64,000 bases of DNA from NCBI GenBank assembly GCA_947626785.1, contig CANQTO010000003.1, positions 1 to 64,000 of the forward strand. The letters are read 5' to 3'. Below are positions 1 to 37,201 of the stretch, one piece after another. Position numbers and translations under genes: made by a program. The stretch is from an uncultured Oscillospiraceae bacterium. Its GTDB lineage: Bacteria; Bacillota; Clostridia; Oscillospirales; Oscillospiraceae. Each line of letters starts with the position of its first letter. Position 1 is the first letter of the stretch. The notes beneath the pieces are model-generated. The model searched no databases, was not told where the DNA came from, and was given only the letters and a program-made list of their open reading frames with translations.

Positions 1-96
1 TAAGCTTTCTTACATTGTTCAATTTTCAAGGTGCATCCCGCCGACCCCTTCCGGCGTCAGCCTGATTAATATACCACGGGTATCCCCAATTGTCAA
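1..96 (-). promoter_or_regulatory. Promoter and leader of a probable rRNA operon leaving the left edge
   Basis: On the minus strand TTGACA (91-96) and TATATT (68-73) are separated by 17 nt, a near-consensus sigma-A promoter. Downstream, positions 1-31 read as a CTTGAAAATTGAACAATG-type sequence, which resembles the boxA-like antitermination leaders found before 16S rRNA genes in Bacillota. The rRNA itself is outside the window, so the target is inferred. The stretch from 97 to 209 is A/T-rich and holds nothing else that I recognise. Confidence 0.6.
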
Positions 97-209
97 GCAA
101 AAATTTTTAGTTTTCCAAAAAATTTTTTCTTCTACTTTCGACGCATATTTTTCCCTGTTTTTTGGCCATTTTCTGCATATCCGGGCCTTATTTGGGAACA
201 ATAGCTCCT

Positions 210-1721
210 ATGAACAAAAACAGGGATTCAAAACCGGGCCCCCATCCGGCCGGAAAGCCGGAGTTTCCGGGGCCCGCCGGCGCCAAGGCGCTGAAGGAGA
301 TCTTCTCCGCCTGCGGAGACTATGAGTGTCGCCCCATCGACGTGGGGCTGGAGGGGAAGCTTTTCGTCACGGTCTGCTGGCTGGACGGCCTGGTCTCCGC
401 CGGGGACGTGGCGGACAACGTGCTCCGCCCGCTGACCCAGGGCTGGCGGCTGGAGGGCATCCAGTCGGAGGCCGAGTGCCTGGAGCGTCTGCTCCAGGGG
501 GCCGTGACCAGCTGCTCCGTCAAGCGGCGGAGCTGCCTGGACGAGCTGGTCTCGGACCTGACCCACGGCTGCTGCGCCGTGGTCTTTGAGGGCCTGGGGG
601 AGGCGCTGAGCTTTGAGCTGCGCTCCCAGCAGACCCGGGCCGTCTCGGAGCCCACTTTGGAGAAGTCCCTCAAGGGGGCCAAGGACTCCTTTGTGGAGAC
701 CCTGCGGGTGAACACCGCCCTGGTGCGGCGGCGCATCTGCTCGCCCCGTCTGAAGCTGGCGGAGAGCAGCGTGGGCCGTAAAACAAAAACCAGAGTCGCC
801 ATCCTCTTCGTGGAGGGCGTGGCCGCGCCGGACACGGTGCGGGAGCTGGCCCGGCGGCTGGACCGGCTGGACCTGGACGCCCTGCTGGCCACCGGGGCTC
901 TGGAGGAGTATATCGTGGACGCGCCCCTCTCCCCCTTCCCCCAGCTGATCCACACCGAGAGGCCGGACCGCTTCGCCATGTACCTGATGGACGGGCGGGT
1001 GGGCCTGCTGGTGGACGGGCTGCCGGTGGGGCTGGTGCTGCCGGTGACCTTCGCGGAGTTCATGAAGGTCACCGGGGACAGCAACACCCATTTCATGGTG
1101 GCGACCGTCCTGACCCTGCTGCGCTATCTGGCCCTGCTGCTGAGCCTGTTTCTGCCGGCGCTGTACGTGGCGGTGGCCATGTACCACCAGGAGATGATCC
1201 CCACCCGGCTGCTGCTGTCCATCATCCAGGCCAAGCACGACGTGCCCTTCTCCACGGCGGTGGAGGTGCTGAGCATGATCATCGCCTTCAGCCTTTTGCA
1301 GGAGGCCGGACTGCGCCTGCCCAACCCCATCGGCGACACGGTGTCCATCATCGGGGCGCTGATCGTGGGCCAGTCGGCGGTGGAGGCCCGGGTGGTCTCG
1401 CCTATCGCTATCATCGTGGTGGCCGTGGCGGGGATCGCCTGCTACACGCTGCCCAGTCAGGATCTGGGCTCGGCGGTGCGGCTGGCCCGCTTCGCCCTGC
1501 TGCTGTCGGCCATCTTAGGGGGGCTCTTCGGCATTGGGGTCATGTCCTGCCTGCTCCTGCTGCACCTGGCGGACCTGGACAGCTTCGGCGTCAACTACAC
1601 TGAGCCCCTCAGCGGCGGCCGGCCCCACGGGCTGTTCCGGCTGCTGATCCGCGTGCCGAAGCCGCTGGACAAATTTCGCGATCCGCTGCTGCGGACGCCG
1701 GACAGGAGGCGGCAAAAGTGA
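210..1721 (+). CDS. gerKA: Spore germination receptor subunit A (GerA/GerKA family)
   Basis: This is the A subunit of a GerA-type nutrient germinant receptor in the spore inner membrane, 503 aa. The first ~295 residues are soluble. About five hydrophobic helices follow from ~300 to ~465, including the family-typical block PNPIGDTVSIIGALIVGQ near residues 370-390. I chose the ATG at 210 over an in-frame TTG at 162 because the family starts with a short polar tail. No strong ribosome binding site is visible before it. The stop overlaps the GTG start of the next gene, so the three ger genes form one operon in A-C-B order, as in B. subtilis gerK. Expression in the forespore is expected from the family, but I could not place a clear sigma-G promoter. 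Which germinant it senses cannot be read from the sequence. Confidence 0.93.
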   Translation: MNKNRDSKPGPHPAGKPEFPGPAGAKALKEIFSACGDYECRPIDVGLEGKLFVTVCWLDGLVSAGDVADNVLRPLTQGWRLEGIQSEAECLERLLQGAVTSCSVKRRSCLDELVSDLTHGCCAVVFEGLGEALSFELRSQQTRAVSEPTLEKSLKGAKDSFVETLRVNTALVRRRICSPRLKLAESSVGRKTKTRVAILFVEGVAAPDTVRELARRLDRLDLDALLATGALEEYIVDAPLSPFPQLIHTERPDRFAMYLMDGRVGLLVDGLPVGLVLPVTFAEFMKVTGDSNTHFMVATVLTLLRYLALLLSLFLPALYVAVAMYHQEMIPTRLLLSIIQAKHDVPFSTAVEVLSMIIAFSLLQEAGLRLPNPIGDTVSIIGALIVGQSAVEARVVSPIAIIVVAVAGIACYTLPSQDLGSAVRLARFALLLSAILGGLFGIGVMSCLLLLHLADLDSFGVNYTEPLSGGRPHGLFRLLIRVPKPLDKFRDPLLRTPDRRRQK

Positions 1722-2923
1722 AAAAACTCCTCGCGCTCCTGCTGGCGCTGGCCCTGGCGCCGGGGCTTACCGGCTGCGGCTCCATCTACTCTAATTATCG
1801 GGAGGTGGAGCAGATCCTGGCGGTGCAGACCATGGGTCTGGACAGCCAGGACGACAGCCTGCGCCTGAGCCTGGCCGCCCCCTCCACCACCCGGGCCGAC
1901 GGGAAGCCCGTCTGCCTCAGCGGCAGCGGCCAGAGCATCACCACCGCCATCGAGCGGGTGCGGAACTTCTCCTCGGAGGAGGACCTGTTCTGCGCCCACA
2001 TCAACCACGTGGTCCTGGGGGAGAGCCTGGCCAAGGAAGGGATCGGCGACACGCTGACCTACCTCTGCCGCTCCCCGGAGATGCGCATCGACACGCCCTT
2101 GTACGTGGTGCGCCAGTGCCCGGCGGAGGAGCTGATGGCCGGCGTAGTGGCCGGGGGGACCGGCATCTGCGAGGTCCTGGACGCGGTGAAGAGCAACGCC
2201 GACGAGCGGGGCGACAGTACCGTCTTCACCGCCGCCCAGGTGGCGCAGGGCCTGGCCCGGCACGGCAGCGCCCTGATCTGCGCGCTGCAATACACCGACT
2301 CTGACGAGCTGACCCCCGCCTCCGGCGGGGAATCCCTGCCGGAGGAACGCCCTTCCGGGCGGCCGGCAGAGGAGATACAGTCCGGCGGCGTGGGCAAGAC
2401 CGCCGCCGTAGACGGCTACGCCATTCTCCGGGATGGGAAGCTCTGCGGCTATCTCAGCCGGGAGGAGGCCATCGGCGCCAACTTCCTGCTGAACCGGGTG
2501 GGCGTCAGCGATCTGACCGTGCAGGACCAGGAGGGGGAGACCCTGACCCTGGAGATCTCCCAGGGCGGCGCGGAATTCGTCCCGGTCTGGGACGAGAAGG
2601 ACGGCGGCCTGCGGGGGATCGACATCTATGCCCATGTGCGCGCCTCGGTCCGGGAGGCCGGGGAGGGCAGCGCCAGCCAGGAGGAGACGGACGCCCTCAC
2701 GGGGCTTTTGGAGGCGGCGGTCTCCGAGCGGATCCGGGCCGCCCTCCAGAGCTCCAAGCGGCTCCAGGCGGATTTTCTGGGCCTGGCCAGCCAGGTAGAG
2801 CTGGCGGCCCCCCTCCGCTTCCGGGCCCTGGACAGCTCCTTTCCGGAGCTGCTGCCCGGGCTGGAATTTCGCATCTCCGTCAGCGGGGAGCTGAGCCATA
2901 TCAACAACTTAAAGGATGCCTGA
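1718..2923 (+). CDS. gerKC: Germination receptor lipoprotein subunit C (Ger(x)C family)
   Basis: This is the lipoprotein subunit of the GerA-type germinant receptor, 401 aa. The N-terminus has a lysine-containing hydrophobic signal followed by the lipobox LTGC with Cys20, predicting diacylglyceryl anchoring on the outer face of the spore inner membrane. The motif QILAVQTMGLD just after it is characteristic of Ger(x)C proteins. The GTG start at 1718 overlaps the preceding stop by 4 nt and is preceded by an AGGAGG-type site, indicating translational coupling. The B subunit begins 2 nt after this stop. The length is normal for the family. Confidence 0.93.
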   Translation: MKKLLALLLALALAPGLTGCGSIYSNYREVEQILAVQTMGLDSQDDSLRLSLAAPSTTRADGKPVCLSGSGQSITTAIERVRNFSSEEDLFCAHINHVVLGESLAKEGIGDTLTYLCRSPEMRIDTPLYVVRQCPAEELMAGVVAGGTGICEVLDAVKSNADERGDSTVFTAAQVAQGLARHGSALICALQYTDSDELTPASGGESLPEERPSGRPAEEIQSGGVGKTAAVDGYAILRDGKLCGYLSREEAIGANFLLNRVGVSDLTVQDQEGETLTLEISQGGAEFVPVWDEKDGGLRGIDIYAHVRASVREAGEGSASQEETDALTGLLEAAVSERIRAALQSSKRLQADFLGLASQVELAAPLRFRALDSSFPELLPGLEFRISVSGELSHINNLKDA

Positions 2924-2925
2924 CC

Positions 2926-4053
2926 GTGAATTCTAAGCATGTCTATAACTGGCGGCAGCTGATCGCCCTGGCCTTTGTGGCGCTGCTCTCGCCCTCTCTG
3001 CGGATCTTCCCCACAGGCTCCGTCCAGCTGGCCGGGAGAGCCGCCTGGCTCTCCGCCCTGGCGGCGGGGCTGCTCATGCTGCTGTACCTGCGCTTTTTGT
3101 GCCTGTTCCTGGGGACCCGGCGGGAGGGGGAGGGGCTGGCGGAGCTGACCCTGCGGGCTCTGGGGCAGAAGACCGGGCGGGCGGCCCTGGTCCTCATCCC
3201 CCTCTGGCTGCTGCTCTACGCGGGCTTCGTGCTCCGCTCCGGGGCGGACCGCTTCATCACCACCATCTTCCCTCTCAGCAGCCCCGGCGTCTTCACCGTC
3301 ACCATGGGGCTGGTCAGTCTGATCGCCGCTTTGGGCTCGGCCCGCTCCCTGGTCCGGGTGGCCCGGCTGGCGCTGCCCGCCCTGCTGGGGATCCTCCTGC
3401 TGATCTTAGCCTTCGCCCTCTTCAAGGTGGAAAAGCTCAATCTCCTGCCGGTGACCGTGGCCGACGCGGGCCCCGTCCTCTTAGGGACGCTGCCGGTCAT
3501 CGACGTACTGTCGGCGGTCTGCTATCTGATCTGCTTTCTGGCCGGGCCCGCCCCCAAGGAGGAGGGTCCCTTTCGCTCCGGCGCCCGGGCCCTGCTGGGC
3601 ACCTGTCTGCTGCTGACCGCCCTGTGTGTGGCGGTGGTGGGCAGCTTCGGCGCGGAGCTGACCGGCCGGCTCACCCGGCCCTTCTTCTCCCTGGTTCGGA
3701 ACCTGGTCTTCTTCAACAGCCTGGAGCGGATCGAGGCCCTGGTGGTGACGCTCTGGGTCCTCCCGGACTTTCTGCTGACCTCGCTGCTGCTCTTCGCCGC
3801 CCAATTCTGCCTGCGGCTGGCCCTGGGGGAAACGCCCGCCTACCACGGGGAGAAGCGCCTGGACCTGAGCTGCCGGCGCTGGGTGGTCTGGGCCTGCGCC
3901 GCCGCGGCCATCGGCTGCGGCCTGCTCATCGCCCCGGACCCGGAGAGCATGAGCTTCTGGTCGGAGAAGCTGATCCCAGGCCTGAACATGCTCTTCGCCT
4001 TTGTCGTCCTGCCCGCCATCTGGGCCGCCGGACGATTGAGGAAGAAGCTGTAG
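2926..4053 (+). CDS. gerKB: Germination receptor permease-like subunit B (GerAB family)
   Basis: This is an integral membrane subunit of the germinant receptor, 375 aa, in the spore-permease branch of the amino acid-polyamine-organocation superfamily. About ten hydrophobic helices span nearly the whole protein, starting with NWRQLIALAF. In characterised receptors this subunit binds the germinant. The GTG start lies 2 nt behind gerKC, and a strong bidirectional terminator follows the stop, ending the three-gene operon. The length is typical. Confidence 0.92.
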   Translation: MNSKHVYNWRQLIALAFVALLSPSLRIFPTGSVQLAGRAAWLSALAAGLLMLLYLRFLCLFLGTRREGEGLAELTLRALGQKTGRAALVLIPLWLLLYAGFVLRSGADRFITTIFPLSSPGVFTVTMGLVSLIAALGSARSLVRVARLALPALLGILLLILAFALFKVEKLNLLPVTVADAGPVLLGTLPVIDVLSAVCYLICFLAGPAPKEEGPFRSGARALLGTCLLLTALCVAVVGSFGAELTGRLTRPFFSLVRNLVFFNSLERIEALVVTLWVLPDFLLTSLLLFAAQFCLRLALGETPAYHGEKRLDLSCRRWVVWACAAAAIGCGLLIAPDPESMSFWSEKLIPGLNMLFAFVVLPAIWAAGRLRKKL

Positions 4054-4062
4054 ACATCGACA

Positions 4063-4100
4063 AAAAACTGCGAAAAGCCGTTTGGCTTTTCGCAGTTTTT
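4063..4100. terminator. Bidirectional intrinsic terminator
   Basis: A 17-bp perfect stem (AAAAACTGCGAAAAGCC, loop GTTT, then its complement) ends in T runs on both strands. It lies between the convergent gerKB and the surface-protein gene and can serve both. Confidence 0.93.
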
Positions 4101-4138
4101 GTTTGGGTTATTTATAGATTTTTCGCTGTTCTACCGGA

Positions 4139-7100
4139 TCAGGTGGAGACTTCCTCCACGCCGTTCTCGATCTCAGGCAGGCCGTTTTCCTCGATGAGGG
4201 TCATGAACTTAGCCAGGATCGTAGCGGCCTCGGCCCGGTTCACCACGCTGTCTGCCGTCACGGCCTCGTCGCCGTAGAGCTCCTCGGTCAGGCCCTGGTC
4301 GGCGGCCCAGGCCATAGCCTCGGCGGCCTCGGCCTCATCGGCGTCCTTGGGAGCCTCAAAGCCCTTGACGTCGGTCTTCCAGCCGGCGGTCTGGGCGAAG
4401 CGCCACAGGAGGGTGACCATCTCTTCCATGGTGGTGGCCTTGTCGGCGTTGAACTCATCGCCCTCGACTTCCACGATGCTGTTGGCGGTGATCCAGGCAG
4501 CGGCGGAGGCGAAGTAATCGCCGGCCTTCACGTCCTTGAACTTGGTCTCGGTGGAGGCGGCGGGGCTGCCGGCCAGACGGTAGAGAGCGTCCACCGTGTC
4601 AGCCAGGCTCACCTCGTCGGTGGGCTTGAAGCTGGTGTTCTTATCCGCGGACTTGCCGCCGCTGAGCAGGCCGGCCTCCACGACCGTCTTGACGGAATCG
4701 TAGAACCAGTCCTTAGTGGACACGTCCTTGACCTTCTCAATGGCCGGAAGCTGGTAGCCGCAGGTCATGCAGGAGCCGTTGAGTATGGTATGAGCCGTTT
4801 TCTCGGCCTGCAGACCGCAGATGGTGCAGACGCGCCAGTGGTACTGGCCGTCGGAGATCAGATCGCCGTACTTGTGGGCATGAGCCTTCTCGGCGGCATT
4901 GGGATCATCCACTCCGCAGACAGTGCACTTGCCGTTGATGAAGGTGTGGGCCGCTTTGCGGCTGACCTCGCCGCAGCTGCAGTCCTTCCAGTGGTTGTTG
5001 GCGTCGCTGTTCCAGGTGGAGGAGTACTTGTGCACGTGGTTCTCCGCCAGGGCCTTGATCTCAGTGCCCTTGGTGAGGAGTTTGCCGCAGCCCTGGCAGT
5101 AGGTGTCGCCGGTGTAGCCGGCCTTGCCCACAGCAGCGGCAACGTGGCCGCGCAGCTCCGTGCCGCCCACATGGTTATTGCCGGAGCAGGTCTTCACATA
5201 GTTGGGATCGACCACGCCGCAGACGGAGCAGACGCCGTTTTTGAAGCTGTGCGCGGACTTCTGGGCAATGTCGCCGCAGGTGCAGTCCTTCCAGTGGCTG
5301 GCGCCGTCCGTACGCCAGACCACGGAGTATTCATGCACATGGTCGGCCTTCAGAGCGGGGATATTGGTGCCCTTGGTGAGCATCTTGCCGCAGGCAGTGC
5401 AGTACAGGTCGCCGGTGTAGCCGGCCTTGCCCACCTCGGCGGCCTTGGCATTCTTCAGCTCGGTGCCGCCCACATGGCTGCTGCCGGAACAGACCTTGTA
5501 GTTGGGATCGGCCACGCCGCAGACGGAGCACTTGCCGTTTTTGAAGCTGTGGGCCGCCTCATCCCCGCGCTCGCCGCAGGAGCACTGATGCCAGTGGCTG
5601 GCGCTGTCGCTGTGCCAGGCGCCGGTGAAGCTGTGCTTATGGTTCTCGGACAGAGCCTTGATGGTGCTGCCGGAGCTGATCTTCTTGCCGCAGCCCAGGC
5701 AGTAGGTGTCGCCGGTGTAGCCAGCCTTGCCCACCTCGGCGGGCTTGGCGTTGCGGATCTCGGTGCCGCCTACATGGCTGTTGGACTTGCTGCCGTAGCT
5801 GGCGCCGCAGATGCTGCACACGGCCGCGGAGGTGCAGGTGGCCTTACCGCCGGTATGGGCGGAGCTCTGCTGAGCGGTGCAGCCGGGGTGGGTGCAGGTG
5901 CGGTAGTGGGTGCTGCCGTTGGACATCCAGACGCCGAAGGAGTGGTCGGAATAGCCCTTGGTCACCACGTAGCCGCAGGTGGTGCAGGTGATGGAGGTGG
6001 TGCAGCTGCCGTTGCCGCTGCGGTTGGCGGTGTGGGAAGCGGTCTGGGTGTAGCCGCAGATGGTGCAGGTCCGGCTGTGGCCGGAAGCGGTGGCCGTCCA
6101 GCCGCCGTAGCTGTGGGAGCCGGAGGCATCGGACATCTTGACTCCGCAGAAGTCGCACCACTGCGCCACTCCGCAGACTTTTGCGTTACTGGTGTAGTGG
6201 TCCTCTCTGATGGTGGACGAGCAGCCGGGGTTGCTGCATTTCTTCTCGTGGTAGGCCAGCACTGAGCTGCCCTTGATCGTATAGTTGTGCTGCTTGCCGC
6301 TGTCGATCGCGGGCGCGCCGCAGACGGTGCACTTGCCCAGCTTGGTGCAGTCGGTAGAATTGGCTCTGGTGTGCGCTACCTTCTGCTCGACTGCGCAGCG
6401 GGCACATTTCTGCCAATGGGAATCGTTGTCATAGCCGTACTGCCCGGTGAAGCTGTGGCTGGAGTAGCCTTTCGAGGTCGTGCCGCAAACCGAGCATGTC
6501 TTGGACTTGGTGCAGTCGTCGGAATTGTCGCTGTACTTGTGGGGAGCGAGGGGAAGGCTGTTGTTCTCATTCCTCTTGGCCCCGCAGAGGCTGCACTGCT
6601 CATAGGAAGAGCCATGGACGGTGCAGGTGCTGGGCGTCTCGTGCTTCACCCAGTTGTGGCTGCAGATCTTGCTCTCGGTCTTGTTGCAGGAGGAACAGGT
6701 CCGCGTCTGGTTGGCGCCGGAACCGGTCCAGGGGCCCCAAGTGTGGCCTCCCTGCTCAAACTTAGAATATCCGCATTTATTGCACGTCAGCTGTTTAGAC
6801 GGATTGCCCGGGCAGCCGCTGTCAATGTTTTCTGTTCTGAATTCATGTTCCTGTTTGGTCCATGTGCCGACGGGGCGGGACGCGGTGTCCGTGCGGGCGC
6901 CGCAAAGGGTGCACACCTCGTAATACCGCTCAGTAGTCCCGTAGTAGCAGTCAAACGAGCTGCTTTCAACGCGGGTCTCCCACTTGTGGGGGCACTGGGT
7001 CGCGGCCGGAGGCGGAGTGGTCGTGTCCGCCGGGGGCTCCGGAGAGGTCGTGTCCGCGGGCGGCTCCTGTGTCGCCTCAGGGGTCGGTTCCGGAGTGGAT

Positions 7101-7387
7101 TCCGGTGTGGGCGTAGGCGTCGGTTCCGGAGCAGTCGTGGACTCCTGCTGGGGTTCCGGAGAGGCCTCGTCTTCAAGGGAGACGACTTCCGGGTCGCCGG
7201 CCAGAGGGACGGCCTCGAAATCCAGGCTGGTCACCAGGGGGGAGGCCAGCACGGCGTTCAGAGCTTCGCTCTCATGGTCATGGTCGTGGTCATCGTGGGC
7301 GGTCCCGGCTACGGTAAAGCCGGCCAGCGTGCACAGCAGGGCCGCGCACAGCAGAAACGCCAAAAGCTTCCTGTGATTTTTGATCAT
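4139..7387 (-). CDS. Secreted CxxC-repeat protein with SLH-like C-terminus
   Basis: This is a large extracellular protein of 1082 aa with unknown function. The ATG at 7387 is chosen because TGGAGGAAAA precedes it closely; an in-frame start further upstream has no such site. Residues 1-30 form a signal peptide. Cleavage after GTA would expose a mature N-terminus HDDHDHDHE. A Pro/Thr/Glu-rich linker follows (about 75-130). From ~130 to ~885 there are dozens of CxxC pairs (CxxCG, CSVCG, CTTCG) with recurrent His, arranged like small zinc knuckles. Three of these units form near-identical tandem repeats of about 100 aa. From ~886 there are three SLH-like stretches (DVSTKDWFYDSV, then KFKDVKAGDYF, then a weaker third), suggesting cell-wall attachment. 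Zinc or other metal binding is inferred from the residue pattern only. It is monocistronic between two terminator-like structures. Confidence 0.8.
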   Translation of the reverse strand: MIKNHRKLLAFLLCAALLCTLAGFTVAGTAHDDHDHDHESEALNAVLASPLVTSLDFEAVPLAGDPEVVSLEDEASPEPQQESTTAPEPTPTPTPESTPEPTPEATQEPPADTTSPEPPADTTTPPPAATQCPHKWETRVESSSFDCYYGTTERYYEVCTLCGARTDTASRPVGTWTKQEHEFRTENIDSGCPGNPSKQLTCNKCGYSKFEQGGHTWGPWTGSGANQTRTCSSCNKTESKICSHNWVKHETPSTCTVHGSSYEQCSLCGAKRNENNSLPLAPHKYSDNSDDCTKSKTCSVCGTTSKGYSSHSFTGQYGYDNDSHWQKCARCAVEQKVAHTRANSTDCTKLGKCTVCGAPAIDSGKQHNYTIKGSSVLAYHEKKCSNPGCSSTIREDHYTSNAKVCGVAQWCDFCGVKMSDASGSHSYGGWTATASGHSRTCTICGYTQTASHTANRSGNGSCTTSITCTTCGYVVTKGYSDHSFGVWMSNGSTHYRTCTHPGCTAQQSSAHTGGKATCTSAAVCSICGASYGSKSNSHVGGTEIRNAKPAEVGKAGYTGDTYCLGCGKKISSGSTIKALSENHKHSFTGAWHSDSASHWHQCSCGERGDEAAHSFKNGKCSVCGVADPNYKVCSGSSHVGGTELKNAKAAEVGKAGYTGDLYCTACGKMLTKGTNIPALKADHVHEYSVVWRTDGASHWKDCTCGDIAQKSAHSFKNGVCSVCGVVDPNYVKTCSGNNHVGGTELRGHVAAAVGKAGYTGDTYCQGCGKLLTKGTEIKALAENHVHKYSSTWNSDANNHWKDCSCGEVSRKAAHTFINGKCTVCGVDDPNAAEKAHAHKYGDLISDGQYHWRVCTICGLQAEKTAHTILNGSCMTCGYQLPAIEKVKDVSTKDWFYDSVKTVVEAGLLSGGKSADKNTSFKPTDEVSLADTVDALYRLAGSPAASTETKFKDVKAGDYFASAAAWITANSIVEVEGDEFNADKATTMEEMVTLLWRFAQTAGWKTDVKGFEAPKDADEAEAAEAMAWAADQGLTEELYGDEAVTADSVVNRAEAATILAKFMTLIEENGLPEIENGVEEVST
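4870..5775 (-). repeat. Three tandem ~300-bp repeats inside the CxxC protein gene
   Basis: Units each begin at a HVGGTE block (near 5775, 5475 and 5174) and run through AGYTGD, a YC..CGK pair, H.HSF/H.HEY, SHW..C.CG and a CSVCG or CTVCG pair ending in DPN. The period is about 300 nt (100 aa). High similarity between units points to recent duplication or conversion. Confidence 0.85.
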
Positions 7388-7412
7388 GTGTTTTCCTCCA
7401 ATCATAAGGGCC

Positions 7413-7484
7413 GTTTTAACGCGTTCCGCCATTTTAACGCGTACCTAATAGGTATAGGGTATGCTTTTTGGCGAAAATTGTCAA
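7413..7484 (-). promoter_or_regulatory. Promoter and direct repeats upstream of the CxxC protein
   Basis: On the minus strand TTGACA (7479-7484) is followed after 17 nt by TACCCT (7456-7461), a sigma-A-like promoter with a weak -10. Between it and the start codon TTTTAACGCGT occurs twice (7414-7424 and 7432-7442), exactly 18 bp apart. A perfect 11-bp palindrome ACCTAATAGGT lies next to it. These could bind a regulator; no regulator is assigned. Confidence 0.45.
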
Positions 7485-7607
7485 GTCTCTTTTTTCGCCT
7501 TTCAAGTCCCTTCACTTATTAAGACGCAGCCCTCGCCAAAAACGGCTCATCTTTTTTTAGTTTTTTTAAAAAATTTTTTCGCGGGTATATTTTCCTCTGA
7601 CGCGCTT

Positions 7608-16607: not shown

Positions 16608-17789
16608 TCAGTACTCCAGGTTCTTCTCGGTCTCCTTGCTGAACACGTGGGCCACGTTGCCGCCGAAGGTGAAGTGAACCTTGTCGCCAATGGCGTAGTG
16701 CCCCTTCATCTCGATGGTGGGGACGATGATGATGACGTCCTTGCCCTCGGCAGTGACGTGCAGGTGCACGGAGGAGCCCATCATTTCGGACACGTCCACG
16801 GTGGCCTCGATGCCGGTCTCGCCCAGGTCGGTGTGGTCAGGCCGCACGCCCAGGGTGACGGCCTGCGGAGCCACGTTGTTGGCGGCCAGGCGGGCCTGCT
16901 TCTCCTCGTCCAGAACGACCTTGATGCCGCCCACTTCCACAGCGTACTTGCCGCCGTCTTTGACCAGCTGGGCGTCAAAGAAGTTCATCTGAGGCGTGCC
17001 GATGAAGCCGGCGACGAACAGATTCCGGGGATGATCGAAGACTTCCTGAGGAGTGCCGATCTGCTGGATGTAGCCGTCACGCATGATGACGATCCGGTCG
17101 CCCAGGGTCATGGCCTCGGTCTGGTCATGGGTGACATACATGAAGGTGGTGTTGATCCGCTCACGGAGCTTGATGATCTCAGCGCGCATCTGGTTACGGA
17201 GCTTGGCGTCCAGGTTGGACAGAGGCTCGTCCATCAGCAGCACGGCGGGGTCACGGACGATGGCGCGGCCGATAGCCACACGCTGACGCTGGCCACCGGA
17301 CAGAGCCTTGGGCTTCCGGTCCAGGTACTGGGTGATGTCCAGGATCTCGGCGGCCTCACGGACCTTCTTGTCGATAACGTCCTTGTTCTCCTTGCGCAGC
17401 TTCAGAGAGAAGGCGATGTTGTCATACACGGTCATGTGGGGATACAGAGCGTAGTTCTGGAAGACCATGGCGATGTCGCGGTCTTTGGGGGCCACGTCGT
17501 TCATGAGCTTGCCGTTGATGTACAGCTCGCCGCCGGAGATCTCCTCCAGGCCGGCCACCATACGCAGGGTGGTGGACTTGCCGCAGCCGGAGGGGCCGAC
17601 CAGAACGATGAACTCACGGTCCGCGATGTCCAGGCTGAACTCCTGCACCGCTACGACGCCTTCGTCAGTGATCTGAAGGTTGGCCTTCTTCTCTTCGGGA
17701 GCATCGTCCTTTTTCTTTTTCTTCTTCTTGGTCTCTCCGCTGATGAACGGATACACCTTCTTGATGTTTTTCAGGGTAACAGATGCCAT
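16608..17789 (-). CDS. msmK: Orphan carbohydrate ABC transporter ATPase (MsmK/UgpC/MsmX family)
   Basis: ATP-hydrolysing subunit that energises carbohydrate ABC importers, 393 aa, peripheral to the membrane. Walker A GPSGCGKST (65-73), the Q-loop VFQNYALYP, signature LSGGQRQR, Walker B VLLMDEP and a C-terminal TOBE/MalK-type regulatory domain are present. No permease or binding-protein genes adjoin it. In other Bacillota such stand-alone ATPases serve several sugar transporters, and that is the likely job here. Odd: residues 21-27 are seven consecutive lysines within a ~20-residue charged insertion between the first strand and Walker A, a region that is short in most MalK homologues. It has its own promoter with a palindrome over the start site. 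Confidence 0.92.
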   Translation of the reverse strand: MASVTLKNIKKVYPFISGETKKKKKKKDDAPEEKKANLQITDEGVVAVQEFSLDIADREFIVLVGPSGCGKSTTLRMVAGLEEISGGELYINGKLMNDVAPKDRDIAMVFQNYALYPHMTVYDNIAFSLKLRKENKDVIDKKVREAAEILDITQYLDRKPKALSGGQRQRVAIGRAIVRDPAVLLMDEPLSNLDAKLRNQMRAEIIKLRERINTTFMYVTHDQTEAMTLGDRIVIMRDGYIQQIGTPQEVFDHPRNLFVAGFIGTPQMNFFDAQLVKDGGKYAVEVGGIKVVLDEEKQARLAANNVAPQAVTLGVRPDHTDLGETGIEATVDVSEMMGSSVHLHVTAEGKDVIIIVPTIEMKGHYAIGDKVHFTFGGNVAHVFSKETEKNLEY

Positions 17790-17976
17790 ACTTCTCGACT
17801 CCGAACACAGGGCCTCCGCGCCTGTGCCCTCACGGCCGCCGGTATACAGCGCGCCGCTTTACGACAGGTCTCCACACTGCCGCACCCCGAGCCCCAGGGA
17901 ACTTGCATTTCCTCCTTTTTTAGTGCTGTACACGACTATAGAAATATGGAGAGCCGTGCACGCAATCAAATTTTTT

Positions 17977-23207: not shown

Positions 23208-23242
23208 GCCGGCCGGCGCGGGAATACGCGCCGGAAAAAGCA

Positions 23243-23315
23243 TTTTCGATAGTCCGGGCATTTACGGCGCCCGGGTAGAGACTTCAAATCCACATCATTT
23301 GAGATATATCGAAAA
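23243..23315 (-). ncRNA. Guanine-type purine riboswitch aptamer
   Basis: All elements of the purine aptamer are visible on the minus strand. P1 is TTTTCGATA/TATCGAAAA. P2 is TCAAAT/ATTTGA with loop GATGTGG. J2/3 reads AGTCTCTAC. P3 is CCGGGC/GCCCGG with loop GCCGTAAAT. J3/1 is ACTAT. The C in ACTAT is the specificity base (U in adenine riboswitches), so guanine or hypoxanthine is the predicted ligand. It controls the nucleoside importer operon. Confidence 0.96.
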
Positions 23316-23335
23316 GGTTCTTTATTATGGCCCTA

Positions 23336-28430: not shown

Positions 28431-29510
28431 ATGAAGAACCTGAAGAAGAGCCTTTCCCTGCTGCTGGCCGCGGCTATGCTGTTTGCCCTGGCCGCCTGCG
28501 GCAAAACGGAGACCGAGGCGGAGACCAACGTCTCCGCGGAGGACCTGTACATATCCGCCAACGGCAGCGTGGTGGACAAGTATAACAACCCCGCCGCCGG
28601 CTACGAGGTGGACAAGAAAGGCAACATCACCACTGCCAAGGGCAAGGTCGTCGTGGAGGCGGCCAACGCCAACAGCTATGTCCCCGTGGAGGACCTGACG
28701 GTCAACAACACCACCGTGGTCTCCTACCCTGTGGCGCTGAGCACCAACGCCGCCGGCCAGGTCCAGCCTGTCACCCTGGACCTGCTGATCACCATCAAGC
28801 CCCTGACCGCCACCTGCAAGGAGATCCGCATCAGCTCGGACAACCCCTCGGTAGCCGACCTGGCAAACCCCGCCTACGCCTTCACCCCCGGCTATGACAG
28901 CATGACCGTACCCGTTACCCTGAAGGCCGCGGGCACCGCCGTCATCACCGTCAGCTCCCCTGCCTCGGAGGGCACCTCCATCCGCTCCACGCTGACCATC
29001 AGCGCCACCGCGGACGGCAGCAGCACCGTGGGTGGCACTACCGGCACCCTGGGCCAGCCCGGCACTTCCGCCGCGCCCAATGCCAGCGCCTCTCCCAACG
29101 CCTCCGCCTCCCCCTCGGCCTCTCCCTCCGCCAGCCCCAACGCCACGCCCTCCGGCAACGGCCAGACCGGCTATGTCACCGGGGACGGGGTCAACTTCCG
29201 CGAGACGCCCAACGGTGATATCATCACCTCTCTGGGCCTGGGCAAGCAGATCACCATCTACACCATCTCCAACGGCTGGGCCAATGTGGTGGTAGACGGC
29301 CGGGCGGGCTACATCAGCGCCAGCTATGTGAGCTATAACCGGCCCGCGGCCACCCCCACGCCCACCGCCACGCCTACGCCCACGCCCGACGACCCCTATG
29401 CCAGCAATTCCACTCCGGCGCCCACCACGGTGCCCACTGCGGAACCCACCGCCACGCCTGAGCCTTCGCAGGCCCCCTCGGAAGAGGACGATCCCTACGT
29501 GATCGGGTAA
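28431..29510 (+). CDS. SH3b-domain lipoprotein
   Basis: A predicted surface lipoprotein of unknown role, 359 aa. The ATG at 28431 follows AAAGGAG and starts a signal ending in FALAAC, so the Cys is the lipid site. The central part (about 30-200) contains Ig/BIG2-like strands (ITIKPLTATCKEIRISSDNPS). A low-complexity Ala/Ser/Pro/Asn linker follows (about 210-240), then one bacterial SH3 domain (GYVTGDGVNFRETPNG...ISASYVSY, about 243-303), which in other proteins binds peptidoglycan. The end is a Pro/Thr spacer. Likely a wall-associated lipoprotein. A terminator separates it from dnaE. Confidence 0.82.
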   Translation: MKNLKKSLSLLLAAAMLFALAACGKTETEAETNVSAEDLYISANGSVVDKYNNPAAGYEVDKKGNITTAKGKVVVEAANANSYVPVEDLTVNNTTVVSYPVALSTNAAGQVQPVTLDLLITIKPLTATCKEIRISSDNPSVADLANPAYAFTPGYDSMTVPVTLKAAGTAVITVSSPASEGTSIRSTLTISATADGSSTVGGTTGTLGQPGTSAAPNASASPNASASPSASPSASPNATPSGNGQTGYVTGDGVNFRETPNGDIITSLGLGKQITIYTISNGWANVVVDGRAGYISASYVSYNRPAATPTPTATPTPTPDDPYASNSTPAPTTVPTAEPTATPEPSQAPSEEDDPYVIG

Positions 29511-36295: not shown

Positions 36296-36389
36296 AAATG
36301 AGCCGTTTTTACGCCGGACGGCGTCTTAATATATAAAAGGACTCGAAAACGGTCTCCGTTTGAAAACGCACAGGAAAAGGGGAAAACAT

Positions 36390-37201
<812 letters not shown>

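What the first reader, a model, noticed from the sequence alone, without database searches (positions are those of the whole stretch)
4139..7387. Surface protein with dozens of CxxC pairs, a His-rich mature N-terminus and SLH-like end
The predicted signal peptidase cut would leave HDDHDHDHE at the N-terminus, followed by ~750 residues of CxxC/His modules, three of them near-identical ~100-aa repeats, then SLH-like repeats. This looks like a wall-bound metal-binding or redox-sensitive fibre. CxxC-rich repeats of this kind occur in gut Clostridia, but their function is, to my knowledge, not established.
Basis: partly seen in the sequence, partly recalled or inferred. Interest (0 to 1): 0.6.

Follow-up and report, generated by a model that had tools for sequence, protein, structure and literature searches.

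The report
Zinc-clamped surface fibre of gut bacteria
The gene encodes a long surface protein of an uncultured gut bacterium, built from about two dozen small modules that each appear to be pinned by one metal ion (probably zinc); the same modules sit as short stalks in many gut-bacterial surface proteins, including a human IgA-cutting enzyme, but a protein made almost only of them has, to my knowledge, not been described.

Summary
Minus-strand ORF 4139-7387 (1082 aa) has a signal peptide, HDDHDHDHE, a Pro/Thr linker, ~750 residues with 60 Cys in 24 Cys pairs (19 CxxC; 4.7 expected), and an SLH end. The three ~100-aa repeats are 60-61% identical, not near-identical.

The modules match one protein in the whole PDB, Thomasclavelia ramosa IgA protease (profile E=3e-15), inside domains ZBD1/ZBD2 that its authors call putative zinc domains with no density or metal data. 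Full-length orthologs in four more genomes keep the architecture. Core Cys are 95% and His 88% conserved against 48% for other residues. The Cys/His form 23 four-ligand sets (11 C3H, 12 C2H2). This favours metal over disulfides.

Best explanation: an elongated zinc-clamped spacer held at the wall by divergent SLH repeats, with a His-rich tip outward. It is the only SLH protein found in its genome, and the SLH-ligand enzyme CsaB was not found there. An unusual promoter element (TGAGCCGTTTTT-N11-CGTCTTA; six genomic sites) precedes it and several exported or surface proteins.

Metal binding, 3D ligand clustering and function are unproven. New variant of a known kind.

The parts
4139..7387 (-). 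Gene for the 1082-aa modular surface protein (P0001)
   Evidence: ORF and translation; orthologs in four other genomes
7298..7387 (-). Signal peptide (residues 1-30)
   Evidence: Basic start, hydrophobic core, AGTA end read from sequence; predicted N-terminal helix 2-22 in the low-confidence full-length model; 74% identical in G018 ortholog
7271..7297 (-). His/Asp-rich mature N-terminus HDDHDHDHE (residues 31-39)
   Evidence: Kept with changed letters in orthologs: HDHEHDHG, HDHEHEYE, EHDHDHES; only HEH in the most distant one
6995..7270 (-). Low-complexity Pro/Thr/Glu linker (residues 40-131), with the conserved start SEALNAVLASPLV...VPLA
   Evidence: Sequence and alignment
4754..6994 (-). 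Module array (residues 132-878): 24 Cys-pair units giving 23 complete four-ligand sets (11 C3H, 12 C2H2)
   Evidence: Ligand bookkeeping and conservation; homologous to IgA protease ZBD1/ZBD2
5477..5776 (-). ~100-aa repeat 1 (residues 538-637)
5174..5476 (-). ~100-aa repeat 2 (residues 638-738)
4883..5173 (-). ~100-aa repeat 3 (residues 739-835); the four orthologs have one such repeat fewer
4184..4729 (-). Three SLH-like repeats (residues 887-1068); only the third keeps a TRAE-like motif (NRAE)
   Evidence: Pfam SLH E=6.7e-7 and in all five orthologs; sequence similarity to Sap SLH structures; three helix pairs in the low-confidence full-length model
7520..7549 (-). ECF-sigma-like promoter element TGAGCCGTTTTT-N11-CGTCTTA
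   Evidence: Six sites in the genome, none with the reversed control pattern; conserved upstream of orthologs L120 and L124
7395..7399 (-). Ribosome-binding site GGAGG
   Evidence: Sequence
4063..4100 (.). Strong stem-loop flanked by A and T runs, probably a terminator shared with the convergent germination-receptor operon
   Evidence: 17-pair stem

Best explanation
The protein is a secreted, elongated surface fibre. A tandem array of small beta modules runs from residue 132 to 878. Each module contributes a Cys pair plus one or two further Cys/His; together with the first His of the next module these make a four-ligand site that holds one metal ion, most likely structural Zn2+. That gives about 23 metals per chain and removes the need for disulfides. 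The C-terminal SLH-like repeats hold the protein at the cell wall, and the Pro/Thr linker with the His-rich tip points outward. It works as a stiff, protease-resistant spacer or coat element that extends or displays its N-terminus; a secondary role of the His-rich tip in loosely binding metal is possible. Shown here: architecture, homology of the modules to IgA protease ZBDs, conservation of ligand sets, SLH similarity, shared promoter element. Inferred: identity of the metal, 3D geometry, length, orientation, function.
For: Module profile hits only IgA protease in the PDB, in two stretches lying in ZBD1 and ZBD2, E=3.1e-15; those domains are predicted to have 2His2Cys and 3Cys1His sites at subdomain interfaces, three-stranded subdomains, ~110 A for three, and no disulfides (PMC12237041). 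Five orthologs: Cys 95%, His 88%, other residues 48% conserved in the core; 92 of 102 core Cys/His fall in 23 four-ligand sets that are 96% conserved; misses are alignment offsets or local replacements, and one ortholog gains a whole extra unit. AF2 model of residues 531-741: mean pLDDT 82, short strands only. In most complete proteins of the 80 related loci, one to a few modules sit near a C-terminal hydrophobic segment, often with a sortase-like signal, beside unrelated domains such as LRR, cellulase, Ig and cohesin. SLH in all five orthologs.
Against: No metal has been measured here, nor reported for the ZBDs of IgA protease, which gave no cryo-EM density. The full-length model is poor (pLDDT 42). 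CsaB, which makes the usual SLH ligand, was not found in the window genome or two of the other ortholog genomes and was only weak in a third. There is no domain at the tip for a stalk to display.
Confidence: 0.55

Rival explanations
1. A zinc (or nickel/copper) sponge: the protein's purpose is to bind and hold metal at the surface, for storage, detoxification or feeding uptake, with the His-rich tip as the entry point.
For: About 23 potential metals per chain, and a His/Asp-rich N-terminus kept in four of five orthologs although its letters change.
Against: C3H and C2H2 sets in a fold are typical of buried structural zinc, which exchanges poorly (general knowledge). The same modules occur singly next to anchors in enzymes and adhesins, which fits a structural role. 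No metal transporter or regulator lies beside the gene: the neighbours are a germination-receptor operon and cytosine deaminase/permease (my reading of the translations). No metal riboswitch upstream.
Confidence: 0.15
2. A disulfide-bonded, redox-responsive Cys-rich protein.
For: Extracellular location with many CxxC.
Against: His residues are conserved almost as strongly as Cys and in register with the Cys pairs; 11 of 23 sets hold three Cys and one His, an odd number. IgA protease showed no disulfides in its structures or models and needed reducing agent to stay monodisperse. The gut lumen is anoxic.
Confidence: 0.08
3. An S-layer-like coat protein: the main SLH-anchored subunit of a two-dimensional surface lattice.
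For: It is the only SLH protein found in its genome and shares a promoter element with large surface proteins.
Against: Found in only 3 of 102 genomes of the genus (3 of 34 good ones), unlike a house-keeping coat. SLH motifs are partly degenerate and CsaB was not found in most carriers. No assembly domain is recognisable.
Confidence: 0.1
4. A host- or polysaccharide-binding adhesin in which the modules themselves are the binding sites.
For: Modules co-occur with cellulase, CBM and cohesin/dockerin domains, and the carriers seen are mostly from animal guts.
Against: [quoted passage not shown] Besides the ligands, mainly Gly and Trp are conserved.
Confidence: 0.12

Closest known systems
ZBD1/ZBD2 of Thomasclavelia (Clostridium) ramosa IgA protease (IgAse, PDB 9qa6; PMC12237041)
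   Same: Same module family by profile search (E=3.1e-15, both ZBDs), with the same H..HW..C..C..H..C..C pattern; 2His2Cys and 3Cys1His sets; next to a wall anchor.
   Different: IgAse has five putative zinc sites in its two ZBDs behind a catalytic domain and before a sortase signal; this protein has about 23 in one array, no catalytic domain, a His-rich tip and an SLH anchor.
SLH-domain surface proteins (PF00395; Sap-type S-layer anchors)
   Same: Three SLH-like repeats at the C-terminus, Pfam above cut-off, similarity to Sap structures.
   Different: TRAE-type motif kept only in the third repeat; the only SLH protein found in the genome; CsaB not found there.
Single-module membrane-anchored proteins of the same genus (L002, L049 type)
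   Same: Signal peptide, linker and the same module (own genome, C7); related ~400-470-aa frames in many congeners.
   Different: One module and a C-terminal transmembrane segment; no SLH, no His-rich tip.
Giardia variant-specific surface proteins
   Same: CxxC-rich gut surface coats, reported to resist proteolysis and extreme conditions (PMC6341118).
   Different: Eukaryotic, no homology tested or claimed; an analogy of design only.

Membership tests
IgA-protease-type ZBD modules | Sequence similarity of the module | tested here: met
   Profile A1 finds only 9qa6 in the PDB, E=3.1e-15, stretches in ZBD1 and ZBD2; single-sequence E=8e-7
IgA-protease-type ZBD modules | Four-ligand Cys/His sets of 2H2C or 3C1H type | tested here: met
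   23 sets by sequence, 96% conserved in orthologs; assignment was made with ortholog alignments in view, so partly post hoc
IgA-protease-type ZBD modules | Small antiparallel beta subdomains with ligands meeting at interfaces | tested here: inconclusive
   AF2 shows short strands and no helix of four or more residues, pLDDT 82; coordinates not available, so clustering untested
IgA-protease-type ZBD modules | Bound zinc | not testable with these tools
   No metal measured here; none shown for the ZBDs in the reference paper
IgA-protease-type ZBD modules | Position next to a cell-wall anchor | tested here: met
   Array abuts the SLH region; other loci: often before sortase-like signals or C-terminal hydrophobic segments
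SLH-anchored protein | SLH domains above curated cut-off | tested here: met
   PF00395 E=6.7e-7, all five orthologs
SLH-anchored protein | Intact ligand-binding motifs (TRAE) in the SLH trimer | tested here: inconclusive
   Only the third repeat keeps NRAE/TRAE (sequence)
SLH-anchored protein | CsaB pyruvyltransferase making the wall ligand | tested here: inconclusive
   No TIGR03609 match in G000, G436, G438; weak in G018; above cut-off in G437; a shorter PF04230 protein exists in G000
IgA protease (peptidase M64) | Catalytic domain | tested here: not met
   No Pfam or NCBIfam peptidase match

The most novel reading that the evidence does not exclude
A previously unnamed extracellular metal-clamped module family, absent from Pfam and with no significant match found among solved folds, is used by gut bacteria as building blocks of surface fibres, and in this protein the array is long enough that its stiffness and reach depend on free zinc in the gut lumen, so that host zinc withholding or release would change what the bacterium displays.
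Probability: 0.1. Interest if true: 0.75.

Novelty: new variant of a known kind. Interest (0 to 1): 0.5.

Why it matters
The module family is widespread in gut Clostridia and occurs in a therapeutically studied IgA protease, yet has no Pfam model that matched here, no solved structure and no measured metal. A natural array with about 23 metal sites and five orthologs gives conservation evidence that the IgA protease models alone do not, suggests which residues are the ligands, and offers a convenient construct for proving the metal and the fold. If confirmed, it would show that gut anaerobes build long extracellular rods with metal clamps in place of disulfides, which suits an anoxic lumen where disulfides are hard to form.

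Tried and rejected
Pfam, NCBIfam and PHROGs scans found no named module family. The BimA hit is only the Pro-rich linker, and the bPH_11 hit is below cut-off. Protein-level scan of genome contigs with the full protein found nothing; a tight four-sequence module alignment did. A broad module profile was too diverse for that scan and found few genomes across the phylum (3 of 298 others), so prevalence outside gut Clostridia is not settled. Foldseek against PDB and viral models found nothing with E below 0.001. VIA-align gave only weak matches (best Z 2.6: Churchill zinc protein, NrdR zinc ribbon); this does not exclude a known fold. The full-length AF2 model is too poor to use. Zinc-responsive regulation was looked for only indirectly: no metal riboswitch. 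A unique direct repeat (ACGCGTTAAAAYGGC, 7410-7424 and 7428-7442) is not seen upstream of the G018 ortholog and remains unexplained. I tried to find the sigma factor for the promoter element: none of the 20 best sigma-70 region-4.2 loci carries it. Literature searches for this protein type or the promoter element gave nothing relevant.

Full report
What is there. The minus-strand ORF 4139-7387 encodes 1082 residues. From the N-terminus it has a signal peptide, HDDHDHDHE, a Pro/Thr/Glu-rich linker to about residue 131, a Cys/His-rich array to residue 878, and an SLH-like end. There are 19 CxxC in the core against 4.7 +/- 2.0 in shuffles, and 24 Cys pairs if CxC and Cx4C are counted. The three ~100-aa repeats are 60-61% identical, so 'near-identical' was too strong. 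Pfam knows only the SLH part.

What the modules are. A phmmer search of the PDB gave one convincing sequence besides weak S-layer matches: the IgA protease of Thomasclavelia ramosa. A profile built from 17 module sequences hits only that protein in the whole PDB, in two stretches, E=3.1e-15. These lie in domains ZBD1 and ZBD2 of PMC12237041. [quoted passage not shown] The cryo-EM map showed nothing beyond the O-beta domain, so neither fold nor metal is proven there either. The 17 sequences were picked by a pattern that already asks for the Cys and His, so their invariance inside that alignment is not evidence; the hit to IgA protease and the ortholog comparison are.

Orthologs and the ligand test. 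A congener (G018) has a 1024-aa ortholog with one ~100-aa repeat fewer. The module scan of named genomes brought three further full-length orthologs from uncultured Oscillospiraceae assembled from samples named 'Lapin', which I read as rabbit gut: L120, L124, L081. L120 is the same gene as the one in G436 of this genus. All five keep the order signal peptide - modules - SLH. Across the array Cys are 95% and His 88% conserved, against 48% for all other residues together; only Trp (91%) and Gly (82%) come near. The Cys and His can be sorted into 23 sets of exactly four (11 C3H, 12 C2H2), which use 92 of the 102 core Cys/His. Positions in sets are 96% conserved; the ten left over are 56% conserved. 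The few apparent losses are alignment offsets (the second Cys of the 328 pair; H397) or a local replacement (the window has C242 where orthologs have a Cys before the pair). L081 has one extra whole unit. I made the assignment with ortholog alignments in view, so it is partly post hoc; the plain Cys/His conservation is not. Conserved His in register with Cys, and odd Cys numbers in almost half the sets, argue for metal and against disulfides.

Structure. AF2 of residues 531-741 with 15 rows gave mean pLDDT 82 with short strands and no helix of four or more residues. No solved or viral structure matched at E<0.001; the best VIA-align rows are weak (Z 2.6 or less), and some of the top rows are zinc-binding proteins. 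The full-length model is poor, though it shows three helix pairs where three SLH repeats would lie.

How the modules are used elsewhere. In 80 named loci, mostly Oscillospiraceae, Ruminococcaceae and Lachnospiraceae from animal guts, with an Erysipelotrichaceae, Anaeroplasma and one Treponema, many complete proteins carry one to a few modules just before a C-terminal hydrophobic segment, often with a sortase-like signal. Partner domains vary: LRR, cohesin, dockerin, Ig, cellulase. This is what a generic stalk or spacer next to an anchor would look like. Many congeners have a ~400-470-aa frame with one module; only 3 of 102 genomes of the genus have the long array. The phylum-wide sample found few carriers with my profile, so the gut bias is suggestive only.

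Anchor. SLH is present in all five orthologs and this is the only SLH protein found in its genome. Only the third repeat keeps a TRAE-like motif. The pyruvyltransferase CsaB, needed for the usual SLH ligand (PMC6030368, abstract), has no TIGR03609 match in G000, G436 and G438, a weak one in G018, and one above cut-off in G437. A shorter PF04230 protein beside a glycosyltransferase exists in G000. Wall anchoring is therefore likely but not secure.

Regulation. Upstream of the gene (7520-7549) lies TGAGCCGTTTTT-N11-CGTCTTA after an A/T-rich stretch. With a looser pattern the genome still has only six sites, all of nearly identical form, and none for the reversed control. The others precede a 62-aa membrane-type ORF inside the window (site 36299-36328), a small exported protein, two exported proteins of over 1300 aa, and an operon-like group with a signal peptidase I and a large surface protein. 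The element also precedes the orthologs L120 and L124 and occurs nowhere else with two or fewer mismatches in 564 kb of module-bearing loci; G018 and L081 lack it. It resembles an ECF sigma promoter (-10 CGTC; my reading). The cognate sigma factor was not found.

Mechanism. I favour a metal-clamped, elongated surface spacer with structural zinc, SLH at the wall and the His-rich tip outside. Scaling the ZBD1 model (about 3.7 nm per unit) gives 80-90 nm if fully extended; this is an extrapolation. Metal storage or capture by the His-rich tip is a rival or an added role. Redox switching has no support.

Novelty. The module kind is known from IgA protease; the array architecture, the SLH anchor, the ortholog-based ligand map and the shared promoter element are additions. 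I rate it a new variant of a known kind, interest 0.5.

Noticed in passing
window 7520-7549 (-) and 36299-36328 (+); G000 C31:24959-24988, C32:22591-22620 and 28649-28678, C73:4250-4279: ECF-sigma-like element TGAGCCGTTTTT-N11-CGTCTTA at six genomic sites, upstream of exported or large surface proteins; looks like a small surface-protein regulon with unknown sigma factor.
   Followed up: partly
window 7410-7424 and 7428-7442 (-): Direct repeat ACGCGTTAAAAYGGC, two copies 18 bases apart in the presumed 5' leader, found nowhere else in the genome and not seen upstream of the G018 ortholog.
   Followed up: partly
window 36390-36578 (+), approximately: A 62-aa ORF with a single hydrophobic stretch and charged tail ([33 protein letters not shown]...) directly behind the second promoter element.
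   Followed up: no
L143 6363-11558 and 12291-15599; L139: Large surface proteins (1731 aa; 1102 aa piece) ending in a shared CC-containing hydrophobic tail (GQCCILHLIIMLCALTV...DRKKRQKEEFE), perhaps an unrecognised membrane anchor; a short exported protein carries a similar tail.
   Followed up: no
window 1-7387 and 33-38 kb compared with L033: In G018 the gene sits between nth and a ~240-aa gene upstream of rplA; in the window that slot holds citrate-lyase accessory-type genes and a pyrR-like gene, and the gene sits beside the germination-receptor operon.
   Followed up: partly
window 17784-17969 (-) and 23230-23331 (-): malK-I RNA motif and purine riboswitch.
   Followed up: no
L070:140-4405 and L103:3887-7738: Other very Cys-rich exported proteins (42 and 33 CxxC/CxC motifs), in Pseudoruminococcus massiliensis and a Clostridiales MAG, with different architecture.
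   Followed up: no
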